50,974 nucleotides of DNA from a virus. Within the stretch, counting starts at the first letter, position 1, and each line of letters starts with the position of its first letter. Shown one piece after another: positions 20,101-50,974 of this stretch. The stretch covers positions 1 to 50,974 of the IMG/VR virus record IMGVR_UViG_3300043411_001266. One strand, given 5' to 3'. The notes beneath the pieces were generated by a model. That model ran no database searches and was not told the DNA's origin. It worked only from the letters and a program-made list of their open reading frames with translations. Both the position numbers and the translations under genes were made by a program.

Positions 20101-23100
20101 TAATTGTTTTCTCTGAACCAAATATTTTTCTCTGAGGCGAGATTCTAGTTCGGTATCAGGAACAGTATCCGTCCAGGTTAATATTGCGGCAATGTCTCCG
20201 TTAAAATACAGAGATCCAGAGTTTCCTCCAAGCCGAAGAGTTCCCGTGAGTAATCCAGTTGCGCCACTGGCCGCAACAACTTCTGAAGAGAATCCATTTC
20301 CGGAATCGATTGCTATATATAAGTTTCCTCCGGAATGTCTTCCTCTAATAATATAAGGTGTGTTGATCGTAACAGTAGCCGAGGCGGTATCATAATTTGA
20401 GTCATAGTTTCTGAAATCTAACGTTGTTCCCGCCGCAGGGAGACGACATTCAAAATATGCACTACTATCTAATAAAATTTCTTGAGAAGTGCCAGTTGCT
20501 TGAGAATTAAAACGAGCAACGACATATAAAATTTTGGCAGAATCGCTAAAAATACTAGACAAGGTTGTAGTGGCCGACAATTCTTGTCCACCAAAAAATC
20601 TCATGGCCCTTTGTCCGTTAATGCCTCGAAATCTAGGCAAGGACGTTGTTGGTAAATATGTCGGATCTGCGTCAATCAATTGGATTTGCGCTCCCCATAC
20701 ATAAACGCCAGAGACCCCATCACCAGGATAAAACGCCGAAGCGGTTCCTGTGTCGAACAACATAACAGCCCAATTCTGAGATGTTGTTGTTAGATCAGCC
20801 ACTTGTTCTACTATGAGACGACACCATCCATTTCCAACAGATTCAATCTTTTGAACGATTGAAGCTCCAGAACTTCCGTTGTTAACAAAATTTATTATAT
20901 CAAAATGAGCATAGCTAAGTGCGAATCCAGTTCCCCCAAAATTTGATCTGAGAGAAAGACTTCTAGCATCAGTCCCTTTTCTTTTTGCATATATGGAAAC
21001 TCGGTATGTATTACCAGCAACCACACCACCAGATGGAGAAGCAAAGGTTCCGGCATGACTGACACTTCCACCGGTTCCGTCATCATAAAGTGTATCGGCT
21101 GTACTTGCTCCGTCTGGTGCCACGGCAGAATTTGCGGTGGTATTTGATCGCGTCAAAGAAAGAAGCGTTCCCATGACTTCGCTATTTGTATATAAGTTTT
21201 CGAGATTTTGACTTTCAGTATAGCATGGTCGAGATCCAGACGTTGCTTGGGTGAACGTTTTTATTGTCCCTGTAACAGCCGCCGAGGTTGTTAGCGTGTG
21301 AGCATTTGGATACATGGCTCTCTGCCATGTGTGATTATGCAATTTGAATTGCTCTGTTCCTGCTGGAGTATATGTTGCTGGTGATGAGGACGAGGCCGTA
21401 TTATTAAACCAAACACCAGCTTGCCTACTACTTGCTAGCTGGACAACATATTCAAAAGAAACAACATAACCACCACCAGTTCGCGGTTCTATTTTAGCAG
21501 CCGTAACATTTTGATAAACGTTAGTGATCGTCCCATTTTGAACATCAACAATGATTCCGACCCAGGAGACATCATTTCCCTCTCCAACCCAAATATATTG
21601 ATTATTGACATATTCAACTTCTATCCTTTGTCGAACTTTCATTCCGATGTCAGGAGTAATAGAAACTGCTGGATATAATCCATGTTTGGCCGCACTTGCG
21701 GTTGCTGTGACAGTAACTCCACTAACAGAACATGGATATGTCGCTTTGTTCCATGCTGCATTGGTAATATCTGTACTATAGGTAATTAAATTTTCATTAC
21801 TATCAGTCGGAACGCTTGCCCATCCAGCAACTCTTCCACTAATTAAAGCAATACTATTATCATTTACTTCTAGATTTAATGTTTCGGTTGTTGATGGTGT
21901 CGTAATTGTTACATCGATGTCAGCCGGTTTTGCTATCATCAAAGGAAATGCAGAGTCATATGAACCGCCGGAATGTGTGACTCGATTTATTCCACCAGAA
22001 TTTAATCTAATTCCAATTAAGTTATCGGATGCATCGTGTTCACAAACAAAGAAATACCATGTGTAAGGTTGTAAAACTACGTTCGCGCTTGTTGCTGTAT
22101 GAGTAGATCCATTTCCAACTCTAAATTTTGCTTTCCTTGTCGTTCCGTCAATCTCAACAATGAATTCAAATTTGTTGTATGTTGAGTCGGCATCACCCTT
22201 TGAAACTATCGTTTGTGTTCGATCAGTTTCAGCAACATAGAACCATCCAGATAAAGTAAAATCAAAGTCTCCCCTGCTCAAATTTTCATTATCGTCGATT
22301 GTTAGATATTCATTCAGTCCAGAATTAAATCCCGCCGCATAGAAGGTATTTGGATTTAACGTTTCAAAATCTGGTGGAAGAATCGAATCAGCCAAATAAT
22401 TTTTGTGTGGATAGAATAATGGTCTAGCAGACGAAACTATTGTGTCTGATGTAGAAAGACCGTTACCCCACAAGACTGTGTTCATGTCTGCCAGATGATT
22501 CGTTCCATGCGAGTCGGATCTAGTTCCAGACAATTCATTCAAATCCCAATACGAAATAAGCGAAACTTTATGTGCAATGGTTAATTCCGAATAGCTTCGA
22601 CCATAACCAACATTAAATAATTCTGTTCTTTCTGTAGATGTGAGAACTCGTCGCCAAGCACCAACATATTGAATGTTTCCGCTGTGCTTACCAGAAGTCC
22701 CGCCGTTATTCCATGCGCCGATATTAAAATCGGCCACACCATTAAAACAACCAGCACTGTGCGCCTTTGTTGCGCTTACTTCGTTGATCGATAGACCAAT
22801 AATATTTGCTACTGGATCATGCCAACAAACAACAAAATACCACTCAGACGCAATGAGACTGATTCCTAGATCGGTGATACTATTAATTGATGTGTCAGAT
22901 GTTCCATTTCCGGATACTTGAAAATATATTTTTGCTCCACCAGAAAATTCTAAGTAACAAAGATATTCTTGGTTACTAGTAGCAGGATGATATTTGGCTA
23001 AGAGTGTGTGTTGAGCCAACACATCATCAAATTTAATCCATCCAGTAAAAGTAAATGTTTCATCTCCGAATGAGAGACTAGCGTTGTCGGCAATCGTCAA

Positions 23101-23958
23101 ATATTCACTATTAGCTGCAACAAATTGTGCTGCATATCTTTGCTCTAAAGTCGATTCTTCTACCGATGGATAATAGTCAATTCCTGGATCTTGAATTGAC
23201 ACTTCATCAATTCCACCGGTAGAATCTACAGAAACAATTTTAATTCTTGCCCCACTACCAGAGGAATCACTTAACCGCGCAAAATCTCCTACGGCGTAAT
23301 CTCTACCAGTATCAGAAAATTCAATGGCAGAAAACATCCAGTGTAGTTTTACGACAGTATCTTCGAAACTAAGATTTTCTTCTAGTTCAAAATCTCCACT
23401 TGCACTATCAGGAGAGAAAAATAATTCGTAGACATGATAATTCCCCATCGAGAAACGAATCACTCGTTCGATGAAAACTGTTTCTCCTGAGATCGATCCG
23501 GTGACAGTTTTTCCGATTAGATCAAAAGGATCTCCAGAAACGATTGTCGTTCTAAAACTATTTTCACGAATCCACTTTCCATCATCGACTCGGAGAATAT
23601 CTTCCCCAGGATAATAAAAAGAAACCATCTTATCAAAAAATGCCCTGAAGAAAAATTGATAGGATTTTTCTGTCCCTTTAGCTCGATAGAAATCTTTGAT
23701 TTCTTTTAAGAGAATATTATCCCGAATGTGAATTTCTCTTGGGATGTTCGGAAGAAATTGCTTAAAGAAATATTCTAAAAATTCGTCGGATGTTCTGTCG
23801 ATGTCAAATGAGTTTGTTAGGTTTTTGACCCGATCCAAAATCTGGTTATCACTTTCCAACCATCGATAGTATGCTTCCACAAACAAAATAAATTGTGGAT
23901 GATCAGACTTTACGAAGTCTGGCATCTGAGACTGAATTTGAGTAGAAATTTTTGACAT
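11125..23958 (-). CDS. gp7: Giant baseplate wedge gp7 with multiple lectin-like modules
   Basis: This 4277-residue frame, over 12.8 kb without a stop, has a gp7-type N-terminus (FVKSDHPQFILFVEAYYRWL, EIKDFYRAKGTEKSYQFFFR). A gp7-type C-core lies near 3800-3890 (YLRDDYYYQEFSYALI, EYIKTLLHPAGTIMFGE). Between them sit three repeating module types. LamG/ConA-like units (EYLTIADNASLSFGD...GWI, WYFVV..HD) start near 285, 550, 2040 and 2440. Carbohydrate-binding-like units (NLLTYSEQIDNAAWTK, GGGWYRI, YTGDGVSGIYLYG) start near 720, 920, 1410, 1820, 2680, 2910, 3130, 3500 and 3615. Shorter ConA-like relatives lie near 1120, 1600, 2280 and 3325. A last ConA-like domain ends the protein. T4 gp7 is about 1030 residues and organises the wedge; here it probably also binds surface glycans (inference). 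Confidence 0.9.
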   Translation of the reverse strand: MSKISTQIQSQMPDFVKSDHPQFILFVEAYYRWLESDNQILDRVKNLTNSFDIDRTSDEFLEYFFKQFLPNIPREIHIRDNILLKEIKDFYRAKGTEKSYQFFFRAFFDKMVSFYYPGEDILRVDDGKWIRENSFRTTIVSGDPFDLIGKTVTGSISGETVFIERVIRFSMGNYHVYELFFSPDSASGDFELEENLSFEDTVVKLHWMFSAIEFSDTGRDYAVGDFARLSDSSGSGARIKIVSVDSTGGIDEVSIQDPGIDYYPSVEESTLEQRYAAQFVAANSEYLTIADNASLSFGDETFTFTGWIKFDDVLAQHTLLAKYHPATSNQEYLCYLEFSGGAKIYFQVSGNGTSDTSINSITDLGISLIASEWYFVVCWHDPVANIIGLSINEVSATKAHSAGCFNGVADFNIGAWNNGGTSGKHSGNIQYVGAWRRVLTSTERTELFNVGYGRSYSELTIAHKVSLISYWDLNELSGTRSDSHGTNHLADMNTVLWGNGLSTSDTIVSSARPLFYPHKNYLADSILPPDFETLNPNTFYAAGFNSGLNEYLTIDDNENLSRGDFDFTLSGWFYVAETDRTQTIVSKGDADSTYNKFEFIVEIDGTTRKAKFRVGNGSTHTATSANVVLQPYTWYFFVCEHDASDNLIGIRLNSGGINRVTHSGGSYDSAFPLMIAKPADIDVTITTPSTTETLNLEVNDNSIALISGRVAGWASVPTDSNENLITYSTDITNAAWNKATYPCSVSGVTVTATASAAKHGLYPAVSITPDIGMKVRQRIEVEYVNNQYIWVGEGNDVSWVGIIVDVQNGTITNVYQNVTAAKIEPRTGGGYVVSFEYVVQLASSRQAGVWFNNTASSSSPATYTPAGTEQFKLHNHTWQRAMYPNAHTLTTSAAVTGTIKTFTQATSGSRPCYTESQNLENLYTNSEVMGTLLSLTRSNTTANSAVAPDGASTADTLYDDGTGGSVSHAGTFASPSGGVVAGNTYRVSIYAKRKGTDARSLSLRSNFGGTGFALSYAHFDIINFVNNGSSGASIVQKIESVGNGWCRLIVEQVADLTTTSQNWAVMLFDTGTASAFYPGDGVSGVYVWGAQIQLIDADPTYLPTTSLPRFRGINGQRAMRFFGGQELSATTTLSSIFSDSAKILYVVARFNSQATGTSQEILLDSSAYFECRLPAAGTTLDFRNYDSNYDTASATVTINTPYIIRGRHSGGNLYIAIDSGNGFSSEVVAASGATGLLTGTLRLGGNSGSLYFNGDIAAILTWTDTVPDTELESRLREKYLVQRKQLNGKVSRLGMWDRLLTYEEHLHLYNLGAGRDYSSIHEDLKTGLISYWDLDEETGTRFDSYGENDLTSSADILDPTDINCIFDPEENVTVDDSNRVSSWGDDNSVLQNFVQSTANIRPYLTRSDNLENRIPYSEDLSDTTYVTYTRSTIAPSSISMSEVDLVSKFVEDSTATNTHLLTYLFGAGEGSTYRFSCFVKAGTKKYIRLAYDTVSYANFDLENGAIGETSTLITPKITPYDNDWYRIQITFAVTDETKKYVYLYLLDDERQTTYTGDGSKYIYLSGVQLNSSLADETYLKTTGSKQYRGQNGYPGIKFDGLEYMTSPSNFVDLFSENQKLLYLVFRTEYTGSSDKYILKESGDFFRLAINSTNIVAKNWDTALDTLTVPIASNATTIYRFRHENGKIFGSIDSGSGFTTDVEVVSGANPQLSGTISLGASAGASIFYGTIFSIITSRNLFSAPKIEQYLRKKYFVSSYGLPSVIKNKNLALWCKGERETGVSSFRISSWLDQSPNNLTFTDPGSTVRPYLSRTDNQGNYLIMSRNLSDGSWTKTNLAVVVDFTTNFDGSTTATKLTANAGTANHSANASTSWYRSSVGSPGKTYKYICYLKRSNYDYVWMGDGGDSLWHGTVFNLSTGTVVLNTNVASSSITSVGNGWYKCIIEFVSLSTSQNLVMYITFALAGTVSGSASTTLAGTEIILMGGAAIIENGWDETVLVTSGTVPEFPGINGKKSLVFLNTFNLPILQSTRTAALFTSANSESLSIADSSALSFGDTDFSIMGWVRIESTGADQYFVSKWNSTSTNQREYRLYFNNSTSLIRFGVSNDGTNETNITSSTIGFGTVTTSTWYFVVAWHDSVNNVIGLTINGTSGTSAHTTGMFNGSAPFQLGAASIPANTFLNGRLSNVSLWNRTLTTTEKTVFYNSGNALRYQDVPDFSGYKTSLLSWWNLDEASGTRYDKINLNHLTDNNTVTTATGPSYNPNETDFVNGNFHWFAVIKPITRVISRKYFIVHALTLDSASKPISGYAVYLSWNPTLERYRCVLKTVQDGVSTEIHSAIEIPFNQVSILEFKKFEDVGTIYLNGNPIGSGVLNNPTTPLKRFSISDATDYFQGYIPELLFYNESLTEDELFKIRTYLKEEWLTDPQEYTQNDSQQRNFTYVDFTEHAQTRLALSPHRQTSQLRNLRGSFWVAGFWVPEQSTDSMVLIQKGDDSSNVFGLRKTSGGYGEFFVTVDGTTTTTVQATNFGTTFNPNEKYFFYAEHIDFDRIGVSVNNDPLIYQSHAKGIYIIDRPINIGAINTTTTYSHGKVFKVCIGSGSLSESEREALYNGGQGLIYDDLPSGITEKLYAFWEMSEESLGLASTKRLNSIETVEPELVLDADDLTSDSWDLTATSAIIGFSPENMLPVDDDFETNWTQINGATTESNFIENPINENLDAARIIETVAAGSHELVSTDAVYCVNGLTYKFSVYVKSAGRDLTIKLPPALFSTTPTVNFDLTLGTVYSSSGTVDSSNIVGIGNDWYLCEVSAIADATGSSTLIKLCLAETPGVTSYTGDGNLGAYIYAPAFIETEHTTEDEETFLLAEDSTTGNHALSQSFNPISDLDDYILEQSPTLFLDPNYTTSDLENIIIQSEDITGSNWNIYRATRTANTVANPLTGTVTADTLTEDGTAANSHALEIATGIIVTGNSYSFSAYIKRAVGTRNVNIYLYSGFPANSFAYFDTSTGALVSAGAGLSSYSSEDAGSGWWRFTVTATATSNATTTPAYIYMASTGTITYNGDSTSALYVYGAHIRRASQLSTYVATTTLAKYAPTPTVDSVGRVGIIASRIGNVAFTQTTEANRPLLSNATRVENLLTYSEQIDNAAWTKYGASVSANSLANPIDGALTAETLIEDGSTGTHHVVQSPAIYAGIPYRFSFYAKAKERSRVYIAVGGSWSPSAGMHVNLSDGTITQTDSGSDWVGYVTDVGGGWYRIQTVGTSTASGTVNFYAILSNTLNNSSYTGDGVSGIYLYGMQMQRAEMYETYTATTAVPIYGSNTGKKMLVFDGSNDSMTSVSLASDILALAEKTTIVSALPFVTSGTHAIIMDTDGTVKYRIYIDTNLWATRNYDGSSDTQSSLTAVTNQLAVYGSVHDGTNIIAQLNTGANASTASGSTSSLGGTLRIGSGSATNYFNGPIGPIVVFNKVLSPEIYNTIVRGTVQHYLPYHQQTFDQHKLEFYVKPHGRSIVRLYLTGPGVNFRKGNIVITYTLTGSGTVSVSSYGGAIVPTIELVDDYYKCSLTYQMVVDGEFTTTIYLDNGSGISYAGSTNPSLDGYLGVFIKNISIKPVVPSERNIFPYPQQLDFGTTSQSTIYQNVELDPTYSLRNVDLLYETAANSTHLIYAPIAYVSAGETYRMTLKVKSYQRTACALRFDTGWAASSYAYFNLTGPVVHSVSGGVFNASITDIGGGWYQLSADCVAVTTSTLGYGSFYLSNTAGTISYTGTATPTHYGMYIHDFKLTLIDSETGVNNLRDPYTLSSFLDLEGFVASGEMVPTVQYSYPGYWLNEDGHLDTTKYLRDDYYYQEFSYALILDDSIDFYREYIKTLLHPAGTIMFGEFQYVNEISIDLETDIILDKEFSQSVLSLVSSIPTPQIGEPNIFVGVAIDLVSSLLEPTVSTGTGASSSAEVLSLTSSLPESSVYILSANEVLPFVMNITLQEPIASIPKIVSVDTFSIAVTLIEPTVTTVVDLDPSTLATVWAWWDADEDAYVDTYAGAPAGDGDDIEYVYSADGNGKRVLGVGPIKYRVNDADSNNNNCIDFNPTSEFVSHYLMSVPKGLKNNRSVITAVFSFRFELPFGDEGEDQQIFFMLTNDSTKTFIRVKADRSGGAGFRLYVASRRTSSDTLYTSTASSSFILSEDNWYTWIIEWDYTNNALYAYQNNKIVFNGDAISGSGGSTASNDAQSDGIIGSNSASDNPLRGKLGKAIIFTGALSADEKEHVNYVMAQHYGYSITPRDY
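12438..12447 (-). repeat. AGGGACGATT word, copy in gp7
   Basis: The word reads along the gene and encodes RDD within the conserved gp7 C-core (YLRDDYYYQEF). Confidence 0.6.
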
Positions 23959-39041: not shown

Positions 39042-40214
39042 ATGAAAATGATAACGACTAAACAAATAACATTAGTAGTGGTTGGTTTTGCAGCCGTTGT
39101 GTTGCTACTTTTGAGCAACAAAGTCTGGGAAACCAACAACGCCGGTTACATGCAAGTTAAACAAGATGCGATATCCGGAGAAATGTCAGTTCGTCTTGAG
39201 CCTGGTATGTATTACCAAGGATTTGCAAACATCACTACCTACAACGTGGCAGATGTTTATGATTTCAATTCCCCAGATTCGCAAATTAATGTAAGATTCA
39301 CAGACGCATCAGTTGCAAATATCGGTGGGCAAATAACATACAGATTACCAACAACTCAGGCTGAGGTGCTAAAGATTCATAAAGACTTTAGATCTTATGA
39401 ACCAATTCACAACAATATTATCAGACAGGTTGTAGCCGCTGCACTTAAACAAAGTGCAACTTATTTTACCGCCGAAGAGGTGTACTCGACACGTCGATCT
39501 GATTTTATTGATTTAGTAAATGATCAGATTAAGTTCGGAATTTATGCTACATCATATACAGAAGAGTGGAAGAAAGATGAAAATGGGGATGCAAATTTAA
39601 TTCGTCGGGTCAATTATCAAAGTGACAAAGATGGTCATCCGATTGTGTCAGAAGAAAGTGCATTTCACATATACGGAATCGAACTGATCCAGTTTGTGGT
39701 GGGTGATGTTGATTTCGATGAAAAAACAGACGCTCTGATTGCTAAAAGAAAAGAAGCTGAACAAGAACGTGTTGTCGCAAAAGCAAATGCCGAGAGAGCT
39801 AAGCAGGATACTATTACGGCTGTTGAACAAGGGAAAGCAAAGGTTGCTCTAGCCGAAGCCGCTGCACTGGTTGATAAGAAAACCGCTGTTGTAGCCGCTG
39901 AGAAAGAAACCGCAATTGCTGAACAGGTTGCGCTTCAAGCTGAACAACAAAAACGCGCCATCATTGCAAAGGGTGAAGCCGATGCGACCGCCGCGAAACT
40001 AAAGGTTGCCGCTGGTCTATCTCCACTTGAGAAAGCTAACATCGACAAGGATACAGCGATTGGTGTAGCCGCTGAACTTGCTAAGGTGAGGTTCCCACAA
40101 CTTATGGTCATTGGTGGTGGTTCGAACGGTGGTGCTATCAATCCATTCGATGCAGTTGGTTTAAAATCTCTCATCGATATCAGCAAAGATTTAAGTAATG
40201 GGGTTGCCAAATGA
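39042..40214 (+). CDS. SPFH/prohibitin-like membrane protein
   Basis: The 390-residue product starts with an N-terminal signal anchor (ITLVVVGFAAVVLLLLSN, residues about 8-26). An SPFH/band-7 domain follows to about residue 220 (RLEPGMYYQGFANITTYNVA, then VRFTDASVANIGGQITYRLP). Then comes a long Ala/Glu/Lys/Arg coiled coil (KRKEAEQERVVAKANAERAK). The C-terminus is Gly/Asn-rich. Prohibitin/HflK-type SPFH proteins form large membrane-bound ring or cage assemblies. In T4-like phages a comparable protein is rare but known; a role in membrane integrity or lysis timing is inferred only. AAAGGA precedes the ATG, and it overlaps the next small membrane gene by 4 nt. Confidence 0.85.
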   Translation: MKMITTKQITLVVVGFAAVVLLLLSNKVWETNNAGYMQVKQDAISGEMSVRLEPGMYYQGFANITTYNVADVYDFNSPDSQINVRFTDASVANIGGQITYRLPTTQAEVLKIHKDFRSYEPIHNNIIRQVVAAALKQSATYFTAEEVYSTRRSDFIDLVNDQIKFGIYATSYTEEWKKDENGDANLIRRVNYQSDKDGHPIVSEESAFHIYGIELIQFVVGDVDFDEKTDALIAKRKEAEQERVVAKANAERAKQDTITAVEQGKAKVALAEAAALVDKKTAVVAAEKETAIAEQVALQAEQQKRAIIAKGEADATAAKLKVAAGLSPLEKANIDKDTAIGVAAELAKVRFPQLMVIGGGSNGGAINPFDAVGLKSLIDISKDLSNGVAK

Positions 40215-41409: not shown

Positions 41410-41690
41410 CCATTTTTGTTGCTTGGGCAGTTGCGGGTTTCTGGTTCGGTGCTTGGATAAAGCTTTGTGGGGAAGAAAGTAACATGCGCTTATTTCCAAT
41501 TGTCAGTATGAACGATCCAAAATATACAGATGTCACCAACACTATTCAGTTTAAGATTCATCTGAATTTTGATTTTCTGTTCGATAGAAAATTGCAAAAT
41601 TTTGGTGAACATAGTTTTGAAAACAATCTTCAACTGGACCCAATCAAAAAATTACTTCAAAATAGTAGACAGGTAGAAATTTATGAGTGA
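41406..41690 (+). CDS. Hypothetical protein with hydrophobic N-terminus
   Basis: The frame starts with an ATGA overlap and a hydrophobic segment (TIFVAWAVAGFWFGAWIKLC) that could anchor it in the membrane. An internal ATG at 41484, preceded by GGGGAAG, would give a 68-residue soluble form (RLFPIVSMNDPKYTDVTNTI). The C-terminal part is soluble. Function unknown. Confidence 0.55.
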   Translation: MTIFVAWAVAGFWFGAWIKLCGEESNMRLFPIVSMNDPKYTDVTNTIQFKIHLNFDFLFDRKLQNFGEHSFENNLQLDPIKKLLQNSRQVEIYE

Positions 41691-41919
41691 TAAAGACGCA
41701 ACATATATGACCACAGAGGCCGCATTTCTATGTACGACATCCAACAAAACCAGATCTATTATCATGGATCACACTTATAATAAAATTCCATTTCAATTGA
41801 TGTCGAAGGTTGAGAAGTTATACAAGCACGATCTGTATTGGTTGTGGGATAAGGCTGGTCAAGACACATACATTTGTAATTTAATTAGACATCCGGACAT
41901 GAGGATGGATTTTCAATGA
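41683..41919 (+). CDS. Hypothetical protein
   Basis: The 78-residue product (TEAAFLCTTSNKTRSIIMDH, EKLYKHDLYWLWDKAGQDTY) has no recognised domain. It overlaps its left neighbour by 8 nt and the first array gene by 4 nt. It lacks the two-helix pattern of the array and marks its left border. Confidence 0.6.
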   Translation: MSDKDATYMTTEAAFLCTTSNKTRSIIMDHTYNKIPFQLMSKVEKLYKHDLYWLWDKAGQDTYICNLIRHPDMRMDFQ

Positions 41920-42083
41920 TCAACGAAACTCTAATTGATGTGAAATTAAAATTTGTTCTTATACAAACCATATTCAATGTAGTTGATCCACAGTTGAGGA
42001 TAGTTTCAGAAACTATCGAAGATGGATTTTCTGATTTGCTTGATAATACAATGATAGACGTAGATCAAGAAACACAAGAATGA
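41916..42083 (+). CDS. Micro-gene array member 1
   Basis: This 55-codon frame is joined at both ends by ATGA overlaps. The product begins INETLIDVKLKFVLIQTIFN and continues RIVSETIEDGFSDLLDNTM. The first segment is an amphipathic helix with the spacing I..K.K..I of the family. The second matches the family end pattern (I...I..GF...L). It is below the usual length cut-off for gene calling. Confidence 0.6.
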   Translation: MINETLIDVKLKFVLIQTIFNVVDPQLRIVSETIEDGFSDLLDNTMIDVDQETQE

Positions 42084-42265
42084 GCCAATATCCTTATCCC
42101 GAACAAACCAAAATGAGATTGAAACTGGAACAGATTGAGAAAAATCTGTATGCCCAATTAGGACGCTCGAAACTTGCGAGGACCGGCGCAATCAATGGAT
42201 ATCTCTTAGCCCAGGATATTAAAAAACAAATTACACACACTCTACGAAGGGCTGAGTATCGATGA
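42080..42265 (+). CDS. Micro-gene array member 2
   Basis: The 61-residue product reads EQTKMRLKLEQIEKNLYAQL, then LARTGAINGYLLAQDIKKQI. It ends with an Arg-rich helix (THTLRRAEYR). It is more basic than most members. ATGA overlaps on both sides. Confidence 0.6.
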   Translation: MSQYPYPEQTKMRLKLEQIEKNLYAQLGRSKLARTGAINGYLLAQDIKKQITHTLRRAEYR

Positions 42266-42525
42266 AGTGGGATCTCGCAGGACAAATTTATATGAACAGT
42301 CCAATCCAAAAGGACGTTGATTACAAAATTCGTGGTCCGATGGAGCGAATGGTGCTGAATACTGTAAATTTATTCATAATTCCACTAGCTCAAAACATCA
42401 TAAGAGATGCGATTAATAAACGAACGACAGACGATGTTCTACACTATCCTTATTCGGTTAATTTGAATATACTAAAGAATTCGGAACGACCGAGGGTTAT
42501 AAAGAGAAAGCGACTAAAGAAATGA
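42262..42525 (+). CDS. Micro-gene array member 3
   Basis: At 87 residues it is joint longest in the array. The first helix is DVDYKIRGPMERMVLNTVNL, followed by IIPLAQNIIRDAINKRTTDD, and a strongly basic tail (RPRVIKRKRLKK). ATGA overlaps join it to both neighbours. Confidence 0.6.
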   Translation: MKWDLAGQIYMNSPIQKDVDYKIRGPMERMVLNTVNLFIIPLAQNIIRDAINKRTTDDVLHYPYSVNLNILKNSERPRVIKRKRLKK

Positions 42526-42737
42526 AACGCGCATATACAAACAATCCAATTCACTTATTGATAGATCGAACAATTCGCGGAGCATTAAATCTAAACATAA
42601 AAGACTTTATTAGTTATTCTCCATGCCGGACATTCATGATGGTAAATGATAAAGCCAACGTTCTAATTCGATCTTCACAAGTTAAAATGCACTACCCACC
42701 AATTTTTTCTAATTTGGCCACGATATCAAATGAGTGA
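42522..42737 (+). CDS. Micro-gene array member 4
   Basis: The 71-residue product contains PIHLLIDRTIRGALNLNIKD and VNDKANVLIRSSQVKMHYPP. The second block fits the D-KV--LI pattern of the family's C-terminal helix. It stops 6 nt before the next ATG. Confidence 0.6.
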   Translation: MKRAYTNNPIHLLIDRTIRGALNLNIKDFISYSPCRTFMMVNDKANVLIRSSQVKMHYPPIFSNLATISNE

Positions 42738-42743
42738 GAAACC

Positions 42744-42959
42744 ATGAAATCAGTTAGAACAGTCTCTAGAAAAATTCGTTATCGAATTAATACAATGATT
42801 CACGAGGATGTTAGTTTTCGAGTTGAAAACAGTTTTCTCAATGAACATTGTTTAAGAGTGGATAAGATGCATGACAATACAGAAAAACTAATCGGGGAAC
42901 ATTTTAAATTGTTTTTTCGGTTTTCTCGAAGCAAGTTACCAAGGGATTATTTCCGATGA
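42744..42959 (+). CDS. Micro-gene array member 5
   Basis: The 71-residue product has VSRKIRYRINTMIHEDVSFR near its start and RVDKMHDNTEKLIGEHFKLF later. These two blocks align well with the member at 46020 (ARKVDYRISDKM, IHDKVDKFLDEDL), the best evidence of shared descent in the array. GAAACC precedes the ATG, and the stop overlaps the next start. Confidence 0.65.
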   Translation: MKSVRTVSRKIRYRINTMIHEDVSFRVENSFLNEHCLRVDKMHDNTEKLIGEHFKLFFRFSRSKLPRDYFR

Positions 42960-43168
42960 ATATAATGTTAGAAGAGGTTCGAGATAATGTCAGGTATCAT
43001 ATTAGCCTTAAGATATATGATATGCTAATTGTACAATCTCCATTGAGAAACCGTGAGAGAGATTTACATCCATATCAATTACTCCACAAAAATGCAGAGA
43101 TATTGAATAACGAACAATTGCAAAATTATTTTGCAGGTCTTCGCGAGATAAGGTATGAAAAAATTTGA
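42956..43168 (+). CDS. Micro-gene array member 6
   Basis: The 70-residue product reads EEVRDNVRYHISLKIYDMLI, then LHPYQLLHKNAEILNNEQLQ and NYFAGLREIR. The NYFAGL end corresponds to NYFVGL in the member at 46020. It overlaps the next gene by 14 nt. Confidence 0.65.
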   Translation: MNIMLEEVRDNVRYHISLKIYDMLIVQSPLRNRERDLHPYQLLHKNAEILNNEQLQNYFAGLREIRYEKI

Positions 43169-43364
43169 TCCAATAGAATTGAGATATGGTCGTTCAATAA
43201 GTCGGATTGAAAGTGCCTTGGATCTCCACATCAGAAAGTTTTTGATTTTCAGTGAATATATCTCAGCGCCCCATAGTGATTACTTCGAAAATATGGGTAC
43301 ATCAATTTCAAAACTAACGAGAAATTCTGGGTATGCGAGGTGTCCCATATATGTTAAACATTAA
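43155..43364 (+). CDS. Micro-gene array member 7
   Basis: The 69-residue product contains IELRYGRSISRIESALDLHI and RKFLIFSEYI, then ISKLTRNSGYARC. LTRNSGYAR resembles LARNTGDAK in the member at 43912, and the first helix (SISRIESALDLHIRKFLIF) aligns with that member's AITNIELVLDKAVKIFVAC. Confidence 0.6.
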   Translation: MKKFDPIELRYGRSISRIESALDLHIRKFLIFSEYISAPHSDYFENMGTSISKLTRNSGYARCPIYVKH

Positions 43365-43527
43365 TAACAAGATCATCGATGCGATTCATCATGCCGGACT
43401 TCAGATTAATAGAGAACTACAAAGTAAACTTTCTGATGTGATTGATCAGAGGTGGAGGGCAGAAGTGATACATCATGATCTTGAAAGAGCAATCGAATCA
43501 ACGATGGACAGGAGAGAAACAGAGTGA
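43351..43527 (+). CDS. Micro-gene array member 8
   Basis: The start is set at the ATG at 43351. The 58-residue product reads LNINNKIIDAIHHAGLQINR, then HHDLERAIESTMDRRETE. The end matches DIERAIRNSMDRDE of the member at 45814 and GIDRAIENSFDR of the member at 43706. Confidence 0.65.
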   Translation: MLNINNKIIDAIHHAGLQINRELQSKLSDVIDQRWRAEVIHHDLERAIESTMDRRETE

Positions 43528-43709
43528 TGGATACGGTCGAAAATTCCCACATCTTTAATTCAATCGATGACAAAATTTCGGAAATGCAGTACAAATTAGA
43601 TTTTCATTGTTTCAAAGAAATATTAGAATCGAATATCGTGATGATTCCGATGGTATTGGTAATTGAACACGCAATTGGTCAATCATTGTCCAGGGACGAT
43701 TTGTTATGA
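43524..43709 (+). CDS. Micro-gene array member 9
   Basis: The 61-residue product starts with FNSIDDKISEMQYKLDFHCF and ends VIEHAIGQSLSRDDLL. The last codons are the AGGGACGATT word (43692-43701), whose AGGGA may also serve as ribosome site for the ATG at 43706. Confidence 0.6.
   Translation: MMDTVENSHIFNSIDDKISEMQYKLDFHCFKEILESNIVMIPMVLVIEHAIGQSLSRDDLL
43692..43701 (+). repeat. AGGGACGATT word, end of array member 9
   Basis: The word encodes the C-terminal SRDD and lies 4 nt before the next ATG. Confidence 0.65.
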
Positions 43710-43915
43710 GTTTTAGAAGCTGGTGGTACAATCGCAGTTCTACACGCGCACAGAAATTTTTCACGATTGAAAGTGCTATGAATAAGGTTAATGAGGAATT
43801 ACGAATCAAAATTTCTCGTGAACTTACACAAACACATTTCGTAACTCAGAGAAATCTTATGAATGGAATTGATCGAGCAATTGAAAATTCGTTTGATCGG
43901 GTCAGGTTACAATGA
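43706..43915 (+). CDS. Micro-gene array member 10
   Basis: The 69-residue product has a Trp/Arg/Ser-rich start (SFRSWWYNRSSTRAQKF), then FTIESAMNKVNEELRIKISR and NLMNGIDRAIENSFDRVRLQ. It carries the family's I-RAI-NS-DR ending. ATGA overlaps on both sides. Confidence 0.65.
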   Translation: MSFRSWWYNRSSTRAQKFFTIESAMNKVNEELRIKISRELTQTHFVTQRNLMNGIDRAIENSFDRVRLQ

Positions 43916-44115
43916 ACAGCTTTTCAATAAAGTCCAAACCAATTTTTCCTAGTTTGGCTATAACAAATATTGAGTTAGTCTTAGATAAGGCTGTTAAAAT
44001 TTTTGTTGCTTGTGGAGTTGCTTCTGGCACAATAATCGATGAAGAACAAATATATTTTGATGAAGTTGCGAGGTTGGCCAGAAACACCGGAGATGCTAAG
44101 ATTTTAAAAGGATAA
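43912..44115 (+). CDS. Micro-gene array member 11
   Basis: The 67-residue product reads FPSLAITNIELVLDKAVKIF, then VACGVASGTIIDEEQIYFDE and LARNTGDAKILKG. Its middle is more hydrophobic than in other members, but not long enough for a clear membrane span. It stops 2 nt before the next ATG. Confidence 0.6.
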   Translation: MNSFSIKSKPIFPSLAITNIELVLDKAVKIFVACGVASGTIIDEEQIYFDEVARLARNTGDAKILKG

Positions 44116-44117
44116 TT

Positions 44118-44291
44118 ATGGATGCCGTTAACAAAATTGAAGAATGTATTCACACCGAAATTAGTTCTAAGATGTTTAGTCCCTTGAGTTCAATTTCGTT
44201 CTCAATTCCGATCACGATTCTCACAGATATAAAAAAATTCATTAGGGGAAAACAGATATTAGACTTCGATTGGTGGAAAGATGAAGAATAA
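44118..44291 (+). CDS. Micro-gene array member 12
   Basis: The 57-residue product reads DAVNKIEECIHTEISSKMFS, then SFSIPITILTDIKKFIRGKQ and ends FDWWKDEE. It follows AAGGATAATT and overlaps the next ATG by 11 nt. It is one of the frames too short for routine calling. Confidence 0.6.
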   Translation: MDAVNKIEECIHTEISSKMFSPLSSISFSIPITILTDIKKFIRGKQILDFDWWKDEE

Positions 44292-44484
44292 AATTTACTC
44301 CGCGCAACACAACATTGAGATATCGATTCACACTTGGGAGCGAAGGATGTGTGACAAAATTAATCTAATATTTCTTCCTGCTGAACATCCCAGAACAGGA
44401 AAGTTATATGAAATCAGTTTTGCGATTGATAATTCATTGGTTAGACATTCCAGAATTGAAGAAGGAGTTAATTTCGAATTATGA
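44281..44484 (+). CDS. Micro-gene array member 13
   Basis: The 67-residue product reads NKIYSAQHNIEISIHTWERR, then MCDKINLIFLPAEHPRTGKL and EISFAIDNSLVRHSRIEEG. The FAIDNSLVR end is a shifted form of the AI-NS-DR pattern. ATGA overlap to the next gene. Confidence 0.6.
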   Translation: MKNKIYSAQHNIEISIHTWERRMCDKINLIFLPAEHPRTGKLYEISFAIDNSLVRHSRIEEGVNFEL

Positions 44485-44678
44485 ACCTGAGACACATCAT
44501 AGGCGATCAATGTATGAAAATAATATCAACATCACTTAAGGATTCGGTGAACAGCCAAGTATTGTTTTACACAACGATCTCCGTTTTCCCATCAAACTTT
44601 AATATCCAACAAAATTCCAACGATAAGAAAATTTTCGAGGAAGTGCATTTTCCCATAATCGACAGATACCACACATGA
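44481..44678 (+). CDS. Micro-gene array member 14
   Basis: The 65-residue product reads NLRHIIGDQCMKIISTSLKD, then NSQVLFYTTISVFPSNFNIQ. It is one of the more diverged members; only the first helix follows the family spacing. ATGA overlaps on both sides. Confidence 0.55.
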   Translation: MNLRHIIGDQCMKIISTSLKDSVNSQVLFYTTISVFPSNFNIQQNSNDKKIFEEVHFPIIDRYHT

Positions 44679-44923
44679 ATGACACCGAATCGTCCCTGAA
44701 TCCACATCGACTAGATGCCCGTGTTCATAACCGTATCAATCTGTTCATTCTGGATATTCGATGTGCAAAACAAGAATCAGTTGAGAATTCACCGATGGGT
44801 TCTGTAGTCCCATCGTCAATTTTATTTGAAGTTGATGAAGTGGTTAGTCGATCAATTCCTGAACGATTGGTGGTAGCGTTAGCGCCTTTGGTAGACAGAG
44901 ATGGATTCTCCAGGGACGATTGA
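44675..44923 (+). CDS. Micro-gene array member 15
   Basis: The 82-residue product reads LNPHRLDARVHNRINLFILD, then SILFEVDEVVSRSIPERLVV and ends DRDGFSRDD. It contains the AGGGACGATT word twice, once inverted at 44688 (encoding ESSL) and once direct at 44912 (encoding RDD), so one gene shows the same DNA word read in two ways. Confidence 0.6.
   Translation: MNDTESSLNPHRLDARVHNRINLFILDIRCAKQESVENSPMGSVVPSSILFEVDEVVSRSIPERLVVALAPLVDRDGFSRDD
44688..44697 (-). repeat. AGGGACGATT word, inverted, in array member 15
   Basis: The word lies opposite to the gene, which encodes ESSL there. Confidence 0.6.
44912..44921 (+). repeat. AGGGACGATT word, end of array member 15
   Basis: The word encodes the final RDD and precedes the next ATG by 3 nt. 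Confidence 0.65.
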
Positions 44924-44924
44924 T

Positions 44925-45122
44925 ATGACAGAACCAACAGACTTTCAAATTAGGTTGGAACTTAATTTCGATAAGAAAATTACTAGGAATTTTGACGCAA
45001 TCATATGGTCTGAAATAGAAATCTATCTTTTTGTTCTGGCTCATGAGATAGTTAACGGTGGAGTGAATAATTCAATTCATCCTTCAAACTATAGGATCAA
45101 TCATGGAAAATCTTTAACATGA
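44925..45122 (+). CDS. Micro-gene array member 16
   Basis: The start is the ATG at 44925, one base after the preceding stop and 8-12 nt after AGGGA; an upstream in-frame ATG at 44901 is possible. The 65-residue product reads DFQIRLELNFDKKITRNFDA, then WSEIEIYLFVLAHEIVNGGV. It ends over the first copy of a duplicated leader (45091-45110). Confidence 0.55.
   Translation: MTEPTDFQIRLELNFDKKITRNFDAIIWSEIEIYLFVLAHEIVNGGVNNSIHPSNYRINHGKSLT
45091..45110 (+). repeat. Duplicated leader, copy 1
   Basis: ATAGGATCAATCATGGAAAA here matches 45339-45358 at 19 of 20 bases. In this copy the ATG is followed by a stop after four codons, while in copy 2 it starts a real gene. This looks like a remnant of tandem duplication within the array. 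Confidence 0.6.
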
Positions 45123-45334
45123 GCGACAATCCGTTTTCTGTAATTAATCACGCCATACATATTCAAATTAAAAATCGATTGCATAATATAATGTCGTTTG
45201 GTGATTTGTATCGGCATCAAGCAAGAGAAAAAATATTTCATATAATTGATTGGCGACATCACAAACTTTCTATGGGTATTGTTAAAGGGCATCCATATTC
45301 GTATGATGAATTGAACCTTTCTAAAAAGAAATAA
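45119..45334 (+). CDS. Micro-gene array member 17
   Basis: The 71-residue product reads PFSVINHAIHIQIKNRLHNI, then YRHQAREKIFHIIDWRHHKL. It is rich in His (9 residues). The last codons are Lys-rich (NLSKKK). It starts with an ATGA overlap and ends 16 nt before the next gene, the largest gap in the array. Confidence 0.6.
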   Translation: MSDNPFSVINHAIHIQIKNRLHNIMSFGDLYRHQAREKIFHIIDWRHHKLSMGIVKGHPYSYDELNLSKKK

Positions 45335-45338
45335 AATT

Positions 45339-45358
45339 ATAGGATTAATCATGGAAAA
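45339..45358 (+). repeat. Duplicated leader, copy 2
   Basis: ATAGGATTAATCATGGAAAA is the second copy of the leader at 45091-45110; here its ATG (45351) opens the next array gene. Confidence 0.6.
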
Positions 45359-45614
45359 ACATTCGGACATTAAAAAATTTGTTGATACAAGAATAGACCA
45401 GAAACTATCTTTTATATTTTCGACTGTTACATCGTCGGTTATTAATCAACTGGATAAAAATCAAATGATTCAAGTCCTATCCATCAAAGATAAAATTTTT
45501 GAGCGTGTTGATGACACGATTTTCTCCAGTAGGTTAAATCTTAAAACCAGTATGTCGGCGAATATTCAACAAGCAATCTTGAAGTCGGTTATGAATTTAG
45601 TGGGACCAGCATGA
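45351..45614 (+). CDS. Micro-gene array member 18
   Basis: The 87-residue product reads DIKKFVDTRIDQKLSFIFST, then LSIKDKIFERVDDTIFSSRL and ends SANIQQAILKSVMNLVGPA. It appears to hold more than one copy of the family helix pattern. Its start lies in the duplicated leader. ATGA overlap to the next gene. Confidence 0.6.
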   Translation: MEKHSDIKKFVDTRIDQKLSFIFSTVTSSVINQLDKNQMIQVLSIKDKIFERVDDTIFSSRLNLKTSMSANIQQAILKSVMNLVGPA

Positions 45615-45817
45615 ATCCAACACTAGCAATCGAAGGTGCAATTAATCAAATAAACCAGGCATCAGATAAAATCGCCACAAAAATTCAAGTCTCCATGGTT
45701 AATACAATGTCCGGTCAATTGAATAAAATTTGGCCAGATGCTAAGATGATAGTCTCGATATCACAATCGATACGCGAACCAATACTCAAAATTGTGAACA
45801 GAGGATTAGGATTATGA
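45611..45817 (+). CDS. Micro-gene array member 19
   Basis: The 68-residue product reads LAIEGAINQINQASDKIATK, then MIVSISQSIREPILKIVNRG. It is uncharged in the middle (VSMVNTMSGQLNKIWPD). ATGA overlaps on both sides. Confidence 0.6.
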   Translation: MNPTLAIEGAINQINQASDKIATKIQVSMVNTMSGQLNKIWPDAKMIVSISQSIREPILKIVNRGLGL

Positions 45818-46023
45818 AGAAAGAAGATAATCATGAAATTGCAGGACTTCTAGTTGATGAAGTTTGTTTTAAACTCGAAGACGCAATCTCACTTCAGATT
45901 TATGTTGAGGTGCAGAGAAAGACAAGAATCATGAATGCAGATTCATATTCGGCCAGAATGCAAGCCGGTATGCCAATGGATATCGAACGCGCAATCAGGA
46001 ATTCTATGGACAGGGACGAATGA
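45814..46023 (+). CDS. Micro-gene array member 20
   Basis: The 69-residue product reads EIAGLLVDEVCFKLEDAISL, then PMDIERAIRNSMDRDE at the end. This is the clearest example of the family C-terminal block. The last codons read AGGGACGAAT, a one-base variant of the repeated DNA word. Confidence 0.65.
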   Translation: MKKEDNHEIAGLLVDEVCFKLEDAISLQIYVEVQRKTRIMNADSYSARMQAGMPMDIERAIRNSMDRDE

Positions 46024-46229
46024 TCTCAATAGGAACAGTTGCGAGAAAAGTAGACTATAGGATAAGTGATAAGATGTGTGCTAAATTTTCACATAATATT
46101 ATTGATCATATCATCTTATCACAGTTAAAAAATGAGGTGAATAAAATTAGTATGATTCACGATAAAGTTGATAAGTTTCTCGATGAAGATTTAGAGAATT
46201 ATTTTGTGGGGTTGAACAGGGACGATTAA
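46020..46229 (+). CDS. Micro-gene array member 21
   Basis: The 69-residue product reads VARKVDYRISDKMCAKFSHN, then ISMIHDKVDKFLDEDLENYF and VGLNRDD. It is the best single representative of the array: two amphipathic helices and the RDD end encoded by AGGGACGATT (46218-46227), which lies just before the next ATG. Confidence 0.65.
   Translation: MISIGTVARKVDYRISDKMCAKFSHNIIDHIILSQLKNEVNKISMIHDKVDKFLDEDLENYFVGLNRDD
46218..46227 (+). repeat. AGGGACGATT word, end of array member 21
   Basis: The word encodes the final RDD plus the first base of the stop, and precedes the next ATG by 3 nt. Confidence 0.65.
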
Positions 46230-46230
46230 T

Positions 46231-46416
46231 ATGAATGAAAAATTTGTTACTAACTTACACAATAAAATAAGTCTAGCAATTTGGCGTGAGATGAATCTAA
46301 AATCAAGCGTCAATATGATATCATCTGGTGAGTTTACGGCTGATAAGTTAATTTATTCCCCACTCCGAGCCTTTCGTCCTAGAGATTATCATACTATACT
46401 ACTCAGATGGATATGA
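46231..46416 (+). CDS. Micro-gene array member 22
   Basis: The 61-residue product reads KFVTNLHNKISLAIWREMNL, then YSPLRAFRPRDYHTILLRWI. The ATG follows AGGGACGATTAAT. The RPRDY segment resembles LPRDY in the member at 42744. Confidence 0.6.
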   Translation: MNEKFVTNLHNKISLAIWREMNLKSSVNMISSGEFTADKLIYSPLRAFRPRDYHTILLRWI

Positions 46417-46619
46417 ATCTAAGAAACGACTCCATTAGTATTCGAATAAACGACACGTTAAATTCATTGCTCAATCCAGTAATGACCTTAGAGACTTGTT
46501 TACTCATAGAAAAATTACATAGCAAAGTTTATTTGGTTGTTCAAGAACAATTCTATCAATTAGAATCTCAGAGCAATTTGGATAGAAGGGCAAAGCTATT
46601 CGGGTTTAAAATTATATGA
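46413..46619 (+). CDS. Micro-gene array member 23
   Basis: The start is the ATG in the ATGA overlap at 46413. The 68-residue product reads RNDSISIRINDTLNSLLNPV, then LIEKLHSKVYLVVQEQFYQL. The LHSKV---V-EQF-QL block matches LHKNAEILNNEQLQNYF of the member at 42956. Confidence 0.6.
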   Translation: MNLRNDSISIRINDTLNSLLNPVMTLETCLLIEKLHSKVYLVVQEQFYQLESQSNLDRRAKLFGFKII

Positions 46620-46840
46620 ACAAACCAAACTCGTCCCTGAAACAAATCGATATCAGATATAACATTCAATACCACATCGACGAAAAACTCATCAAAAAAT
46701 TGTATTCGGATGCATTGGCATTAAGACTCCAAACGAAGGTTTCGCTTGTGATTGATCTCGCAAGATGTTTTGATAGGAAGCAACTTGATCCAAACTGTTC
46801 AGAAATTATTATTAATCCAAGGACGATTTATCATGAGTGA
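46616..46840 (+). CDS. Micro-gene array member 24
   Basis: The 74-residue product reads QIDIRYNIQYHIDEKLIKKL, then LRLQTKVSLVIDLARCFDRK. It ends NPRTIYHE, where AAGGACGATT (46818) falls in another frame from RDD. It overlaps the next gene by 8 nt. Confidence 0.6.
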   Translation: MNKPNSSLKQIDIRYNIQYHIDEKLIKKLYSDALALRLQTKVSLVIDLARCFDRKQLDPNCSEIIINPRTIYHE

Positions 46841-47033
46841 CAACGATGGACACAAACCGAACATTACCATCAATCGAAAAGTGAACGAAAAGATCCGCGA
46901 AACACTTGAACGTACCATGTATACGTTATGTGTCGTTAATTTAATTACGGTTGCGTCTTTCAAAATTCTCTACACAATTGATAGGGAGATTGGGGATAGT
47001 TATTCCGCACCACATATACAAGATCTTTTTTAA
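46833..47033 (+). CDS. Micro-gene array member 25 (last)
   Basis: The ATG at 46833 follows AAGGACGATTTATC. The 66-residue product reads ITINRKVNEKIRETLERTMY, then SFKILYTIDREIGDSYSAPH. It closes the array, 28 nt before the convergent end of the tape-measure-like gene. Confidence 0.6.
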   Translation: MSDNDGHKPNITINRKVNEKIRETLERTMYTLCVVNLITVASFKILYTIDREIGDSYSAPHIQDLF

Positions 47034-50859: not shown

Positions 50860-50862
50860 ATT

Positions 50863-50974
50863 ACCAACGGAGCTACCAACGGAGCTACCAACGGAGCTAC
50901 CAACGGAGCTACCAACGGAGCTACCAACGGAGCTACCAACGGAGCTACCAACGGAGCTACCAACGGAGCTACCA
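50863..50974. repeat. 12-bp tandem repeat running off the window
   Basis: The unit ACCAACGGAGCT is repeated without change nine times, plus four bases, to the end of the window; the true number is unknown. The unit is a multiple of three and open in five frames. On the plus strand an ATG at 50824 gives [13 protein letters not shown] followed by (TNGA)n; on the minus strand the repeat gives (LVAP)n. It may be a repetitive coding segment or a non-coding iteron array. Confidence 0.85.

What the first reader, a model, noticed from the sequence alone, without database searches (positions are those of the whole stretch)
41916..47033. Array of about 25 tiny diverged paralogues in one coupled operon
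Twenty-five consecutive plus-strand frames of 53-87 codons fill 5.1 kb with almost no gaps, most joined by 4-nt ATGA overlaps. They look like one family: an N-terminal amphipathic helix (pattern RKIxYRIxxxI) and a C-terminal helix ending I-RAI-NSxDR or NYFxGL-RDD. Clear pairs are 42744/46020, 42956/46413 and 43351/45814. A duplicated leader and related 3' ends support tandem duplication. Such an array of small, fast-diverging proteins could be anti-defence or host-takeover proteins, or a mutual-binding multimer. I know of no described system like it. Function is inference.
Basis: partly seen in the sequence, partly recalled or inferred. Interest (0 to 1): 0.88.

Follow-up and report, generated by a model that had tools for sequence, protein, structure and literature searches.

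The report
Array of 25 tiny related phage genes
A fragment of a T4-like virus of bacteria carries 25 tiny genes in a row, linked start-to-stop; most or all descend from one ancestor and share an unusual water-avoiding pattern repeating every four amino acids, so they are probably a home-grown family of small helical binding proteins aimed at the host.

Summary
Window 41916-47033 is filled by 25 consecutive plus-strand genes of 55-87 codons; 15 of 24 junctions are exact 4-nt ATGA/GTGA overlaps. Dinucleotide shuffles give chains of at most 4. Start sites carry real Shine-Dalgarno signals, and the strongest protein signal lies only in the proposed frames and only at codon position 2, so these are genes under protein-level selection. 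They are paralogues: array pairs score far above shuffles, control pairs do not, and a two-block family model beats shuffled sets at z=6. By profile alone about 10 of 25 are secure; the rest rest on size, coupling and pattern.

New here: I/L/V/M/F recur every 3.9-4.0 residues (z about 7), not 3.6 as in ordinary amphipathic helices or in other small proteins of this phage. Two AlphaFold models are single long helices.

No relative was found in phages, IMG/VR, bacterial genomes, Pfam, PHROGs or PDB. The layout has a precedent, the 'ORFanage' of T4-like cyanophage S-PM2, which mixes several families. This is a longer version dominated by one family. Function is inferred: host takeover or counter-defence binding proteins (about 50%), with a co-assembling helical multimer as main rival.

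The parts
41916..42083 (+). array gene 1, 55 aa (pI 4.1)
   Evidence: family membership by profile not shown
42080..42265 (+). array gene 2, 61 aa
   Evidence: not found by profile
42262..42525 (+). array gene 3, 87 aa; 4-residue ladder over residues 11-51
   Evidence: p=0.003
42522..42737 (+). array gene 4, 71 aa; ladder 10-38
   Evidence: p=0.017; not found by profile
42744..42959 (+). array gene 5, 71 aa; closest paralogue 46020; ladder 7-39
   Evidence: z 9.1; p=0.003
42956..43168 (+). array gene 6, 70 aa
   Evidence: p=0.03
43155..43364 (+). array gene 7, 69 aa; pairs with 43912
   Evidence: z 6.1
43351..43527 (+). array gene 8, 58 aa; closest paralogue 45814
   Evidence: (z 6.9)
43524..43709 (+). 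array gene 9, 61 aa, GTG start
43706..43915 (+). array gene 10, 69 aa
43912..44115 (+). array gene 11, 67 aa
   Evidence: not found by profile
44118..44291 (+). array gene 12, 57 aa
44281..44484 (+). array gene 13, 67 aa
44481..44678 (+). array gene 14, 65 aa
   Evidence: not found by profile
44675..44923 (+). array gene 15, 82 aa; ladder 41-73
   Evidence: p=0.003; not found by profile
44925..45122 (+). array gene 16, 65 aa; longest ladder, residues 7-51
   Evidence: p<0.004; not found by profile
45119..45334 (+). array gene 17, 71 aa
45351..45614 (+). array gene 18, 87 aa
45611..45817 (+). array gene 19, 68 aa
45814..46023 (+). array gene 20, 69 aa; ladder 1-33; AlphaFold model one long helix (pLDDT 82)
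   Evidence: p=0.003
46020..46229 (+). array gene 21, 69 aa; ladder 7-31; AlphaFold model one long helix (pLDDT 89)
   Evidence: p=0.01
46231..46416 (+). array gene 22, 61 aa
   Evidence: p=0.013
46413..46619 (+). array gene 23, 68 aa
46616..46840 (+). array gene 24, 74 aa
46833..47033 (+). array gene 25, 66 aa; last gene, 28 bp before the stop of the convergent 924-aa tail gene
   Evidence: p=0.037
45086..45115 (+). duplicated leader, copy 1, with fossil start ATGGAAAATCTTTAA
45334..45363 (+). duplicated leader, copy 2, the live start of gene 18
43691..43701 (+). 11-mer CARGGACGATT upstream of the 43706 start; further copies at 44911, 46011 (one mismatch), 46217 and 46818 lie upstream of the 44925, 46020, 46231 and 46833 starts

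Best explanation
It is a lineage-specific expansion of a small (about 68 aa) helical protein family, in an ORFanage or hyperplastic region of a T4-like myovirus, on the strand opposite to the late tail genes. Shown: the 25 frames form one chain, are preceded by Shine-Dalgarno sequences, mostly overlap by ATGA, and are under protein-level selection; the proteins are paralogous as a set and keep a hydrophobic residue every fourth position while nearly everything else, including net charge (-9.5 to +8.6), has diverged. Inferred: ribosomes pass from gene to gene by termination-reinitiation, so all members are made together; the 4-residue ridge is the packing face of a helix or helical hairpin; the changed surfaces bind different partners. 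The likeliest use is as host-directed binding proteins (takeover or counter-defence inhibitors) made early or mid infection, kept as a diverse set because hosts vary.
For: Chain of 25 vs at most 4 by chance; ATGA junctions and SD signals. Paralogy (family model z=6.1). Hydrophobic autocorrelation peaks at lags 4, 8, 12 and is negative at lag 3, in codon position 2 only; period 3.9-4.0 z about 7; not in the other forward frames and not in 15 other small genes of the window. Conserved core with variable remainder; wide charge spread. T4-like setting. Precedent: 33 ORFans of S-PM2 in the same layout, dispensable and costly in the laboratory host (PMC4503421), which is what conditional host-interaction genes would look like. 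T4-like phages do amplify anti-defence genes (PMC13096335, abstract).
Against: No member matches a known takeover or anti-defence protein. The single PADLOC hit (45351 to Csn2, E=4.6e-4) is short and Csn2 is not a counter-defence protein. No relatives exist to measure diversifying selection. About 7 of 25 are not tied to the family by profile. Twenty-five separate targets is a large number, and a shared packing ridge could equally mean that the proteins bind each other. Early or middle timing is inferred from strand and neighbours only.
Confidence: 0.5

Rival explanations
1. The paralogues assemble with each other into a mixed helical multimer or filament. The common 4-residue hydrophobic ridge is the shared interface, and coupling keeps subunits in proportion.
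For: Shared ridge in spite of diverged sequences; mixed acidic and basic members; coupling; both AlphaFold models are long single helices lacking a fold of their own. A period above 3.6 fits right-handed helix packing (established coiled-coil theory).
Against: Two models from thin alignments only; no complex could be modelled. Interfaces between fixed partners usually conserve polar and charged positions too, which is not seen. The charge periodicity is weak.
Confidence: 0.25
2. An ordinary accumulation of unrelated ORFans, as in other T4-like ORFanages, in which a few families are multi-copy; the '25-member family' is an overstatement.
For: S-PM2 and S-SRM01 clusters hold a few small paralogous groups among singletons; about 7 of 25 array proteins fail the profile test.
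Against: Array-wide z distribution (mean 0.85 vs 0.22 in S-PM2), uniform size, and the period-4 signal surviving removal of five genes at a time.
Confidence: 0.15
3. The frames are not genes: an RNA or DNA element, or chance.
For: A dispersed 11-mer is enriched in and near the array. Codon-usage signal is modest (best frame in 14 of 25).
Against: Chain, SD and codon-position-2 evidence; no Rfam match.
Confidence: 0.02
4. A reservoir of gene fragments that recombine to generate variants of one expressed protein.
For: Relic duplication of a gene start at 45086 and 45334.
Against: Every member has its own start and stop and nearly all an SD; no near-identical cassettes; best pairs only about 30-40% identical.
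Confidence: 0.04

Closest known systems
ORFanage of cyanophage S-PM2 (ORFs 017-050; PMC4503421)
   Same: T4-like phage; run of about 33 contiguous small ORFans; many 4-nt overlaps; same strand; no database relatives; some internal paralogy
   Different: Several unrelated families and singletons, mean z 0.22; ordinary 3.4-3.8 residue periodicity; no sequence relation to this array; longest strict chain 11
Small-gene cluster of freshwater Synechococcus phage S-SRM01 (L160/L161, MW015081)
   Same: Chain of 13 small coupled genes with repeated families such as MTxEQILELA...LLKFAxxIY
   Different: Mixed families; the family HMM does not find the array proteins (best E=0.1)
T4-type hyperplastic regions with promoter-stem-loop (PeSL) cassettes (reviewed in PMC2984593; PeSL papers named in PMC4503421)
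   Same: Variable blocks of small genes between conserved modules
   Different: PeSL cassettes need intergenic spacers, and here there are almost none
Segmental amplification of anti-defence genes in T4-like phages (PMC13096335)
   Same: Tandem copies of small genes arising by recombination
   Different: Those copies are recent; these are at most about 40% identical

Membership tests
T4-like phage ORFanage / hyperplastic region | lies in a T4-like phage | tested here: met
   gp6, gp26, gp5 lysozyme, gp13- and gp15-type tail and neck proteins
T4-like phage ORFanage / hyperplastic region | contiguous run of small genes without database relatives | tested here: met
T4-like phage ORFanage / hyperplastic region | dispensable in laboratory culture, as in S-PM2 | not testable with these tools
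   no isolate
T4-like phage ORFanage / hyperplastic region | synteny lost between close relatives | tested here: inconclusive
   nearest gp6 relative is only 40% identical; no close relative in the collections
PeSL-shuffled cassettes | promoter plus stem-loop between small genes | tested here: not met
   15 of 24 junctions overlap by 4 nt and the largest gap is 16 bp; promoter-like sites not above chance
S-PM2/S-SRM01 ELA-FA small protein family | HMM match | tested here: not met
   best E=0.097
Known Pfam, PHROG or PADLOC families | profile match at accepted threshold | tested here: not met
   ten members scanned against Pfam, all 25 against PHROGs and PADLOC; one weak 18-bit Csn2 hit
Counter-defence or host-takeover proteins | inhibits a host function or defence | not testable with these tools
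   needs experiment

The most novel reading that the evidence does not exclude
A phage makes 25 co-translated, non-identical tiny helical subunits with a strict four-residue hydrophobic ridge that assemble with each other in a right-handed helical packing mode: a combinatorial hetero-multimer built from an in-house paralogue library.
Probability: 0.15. Interest if true: 0.88.

Novelty: new variant of a known kind. Interest (0 to 1): 0.64.

Why it matters
Phage ORFanages are common and mostly opaque. Here one family dominates, so the array gives an internal alignment from which a shared physical rule (hydrophobic residue every fourth position) can be read with no relatives at all. It offers a natural library of about 25 variants of one minimal scaffold for testing whether phages diversify small binding proteins against hosts. 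The period-4 plus codon-position-2 test is also a way to show coding and kinship in orphan small-gene arrays.

Tried and rejected
Whole-array nucleotide search and concatenated tblastn (nine members) at E<=10 against phages: nothing. SPFH and 924-aa neighbours as hooks into IMG/VR: nothing. gp6 gave 80 relatives at most 40% identical, none with such an array. The apparent chain of 8 in L009 is shadow frames of a GC-rich genome. Family profile against 27 other phage records: no match, though the profile is weak. Single-protein and pair-alignment scans of viral and bacterial collections: nothing; the 13-protein alignment was too diverged to scan. Foldseek for single-helix models: no hits and uninformative. 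PDB sequence profile: chance-level only. Csn2 hit considered and rejected as helix similarity. One cross-match, 44925 to S-PM2 ORF042 (z 7.7, best of 750 pairs), did not survive the family HMM. A DNA-level 12-bp repeat as the cause of the period was rejected: codon positions 1 and 3 carry no signal. Helical moment at 100 degrees does not separate the array from other small genes, which led to the period-4 test.
Full report
Setting. The window is a 50,974-base linear virus record of a T4-like myovirus: tail sheath stabiliser, neck, gp6, gp5-lysozyme and gp26-type proteins match PHROGs and T4-like phages of Pelagibacter, Methylophilales and cyanobacteria. The best gp6 relative in IMG/VR is only 40% identical, so no close relative is available. 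Late genes run on the minus strand; the plus strand from 32.6 to 47.0 kb carries small genes, an N6-methyltransferase-like protein and an SPFH/band-7 protein. The array is the end of that plus-strand block and meets the 924-aa minus-strand tail gene head-on.

The observation. Twenty-five frames of 55-87 codons are chained with 15 of 24 junctions at exactly -4. Chance gives chains of 0-4. The chain extends upstream through further small genes to 31 members, which are not of the family. In about 3.6 Mb of other T4-like phage DNA the longest chains are 13 (S-SRM01) and 11 (S-PM2 ORFanage).

Are they genes? Yes. Shine-Dalgarno pairing before the starts is far stronger than before internal ATGs. 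The annotated frame has the best codon score in 14 of 25 (expected about 4) and the best mean. The strongest argument is the periodicity test: the lag-4 and lag-8 signal sits only at codon position 2 (z 5.5 and 5.0), not at positions 1 or 3, and the period-4 power is z 6.6 in the proposed frames and not significant in the other two forward frames (one reverse frame, whose middle base is complementary to the same position, reaches 2.0).

Are they one family? As a set, yes. Pairwise scores, a leave-one-out two-block motif model (334 bits against 232 +/- 17 for shuffles) and a leave-one-out HMM agree, but the HMM places only 10 of 25 in the top 1% of decoys, and about 7 members cannot be tied in by profile. 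Similarity does not decay with distance, so duplication is old or was followed by shuffling. One relic is visible: the leader of 45351 is repeated at 45086 with a 4-codon fossil start (reading of the sequence).

What they look like. The family model shows hydrophobic residues at block-1 columns 1, 5, 9, 13, 17 (15, 22, 23, 25 and 20 of 25) and block-2 columns 3, 7, 11. Autocorrelation peaks at 4, 8 and 12, with strong avoidance at 3. The periodogram peaks at 3.9-4.0, while the S-PM2 ORFanage proteins peak broadly at 3.4-3.8 and other small proteins of this phage show 3.6 and not 4.0. Individual ladders run up to 45 residues, as in 44925. AlphaFold gives single long helices for 46020 and 45814 with pLDDT 89 and 82 but pTM 0.45-0.50, so helicity is likely and tertiary structure unknown. 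A hydrophobic seam with period above 3.6 winds right-handed round an alpha helix (established coiled-coil theory); with a period near 4.0 it drifts 40 degrees per step, which suits steeply crossed short helices or wrapping contacts rather than a classic heptad coil. That structural reading is inference.

The C-terminal motif. It is also one copy of an 11-mer, CARGGACGATT, found 27 times with up to one mismatch in the window (1.7 expected), with no exact copy in 3.6 Mb of relatives. The -IxRAIxxS- part of the motif is genuine protein similarity.

Function. Nothing matches known families. Given orientation with the non-late genes, coupling, size, divergence outside a structural core and wide charge range, host-directed binding proteins are the best guess (0.5). 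A co-assembling multimer is the main rival (0.25).

Novelty. The layout is a known kind: the S-PM2 ORFanage (PMC4503421) was read here and tested with the same statistics. It has some paralogy but in several families. The single dominant family, the length of the chain and the period-4 rule are new as far as the held literature and collections show; literature searches were narrow.

Noticed in passing
whole window, densest at 43.7-50.9 kb: Dispersed 11-mer CARGGACGATT on both strands: 13 exact and 27 with up to one mismatch against 1.7 expected; no exact copy in 3.6 Mb of T4-like relatives. Some copies serve as SD sites in the array, others lie inside or antisense to late genes. Function unknown.
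   Followed up: partly
50862-50974: Perfect 12-bp tandem repeat TACCAACGGAGC, 9.4 copies, running off the contig end next to gp26; probably why the assembly stops.
   Followed up: no
39042-40214: SPFH/band-7 protein, related to those of crAss-like and Vibrio phages, heading the small-gene run.
   Followed up: partly
41412-41434 and 43999-44021: 23-nt stretch 91% identical between upstream gene 41406 (IFVAWAVAGF) and array gene 43912 (IFVACGVASG), suggesting recombination between the upstream genes and the array.
   Followed up: no
L160, L161 (S-SRM01) and L129 (S-PM2): A small-protein family MTxEQILELA...LLKFAxxIY is multi-copy in the small-gene clusters of both cyanophages.
   Followed up: partly
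11125-23958 (minus): 4277-aa open frame among the baseplate and tail genes, unusually long for a T4-like phage.
   Followed up: no
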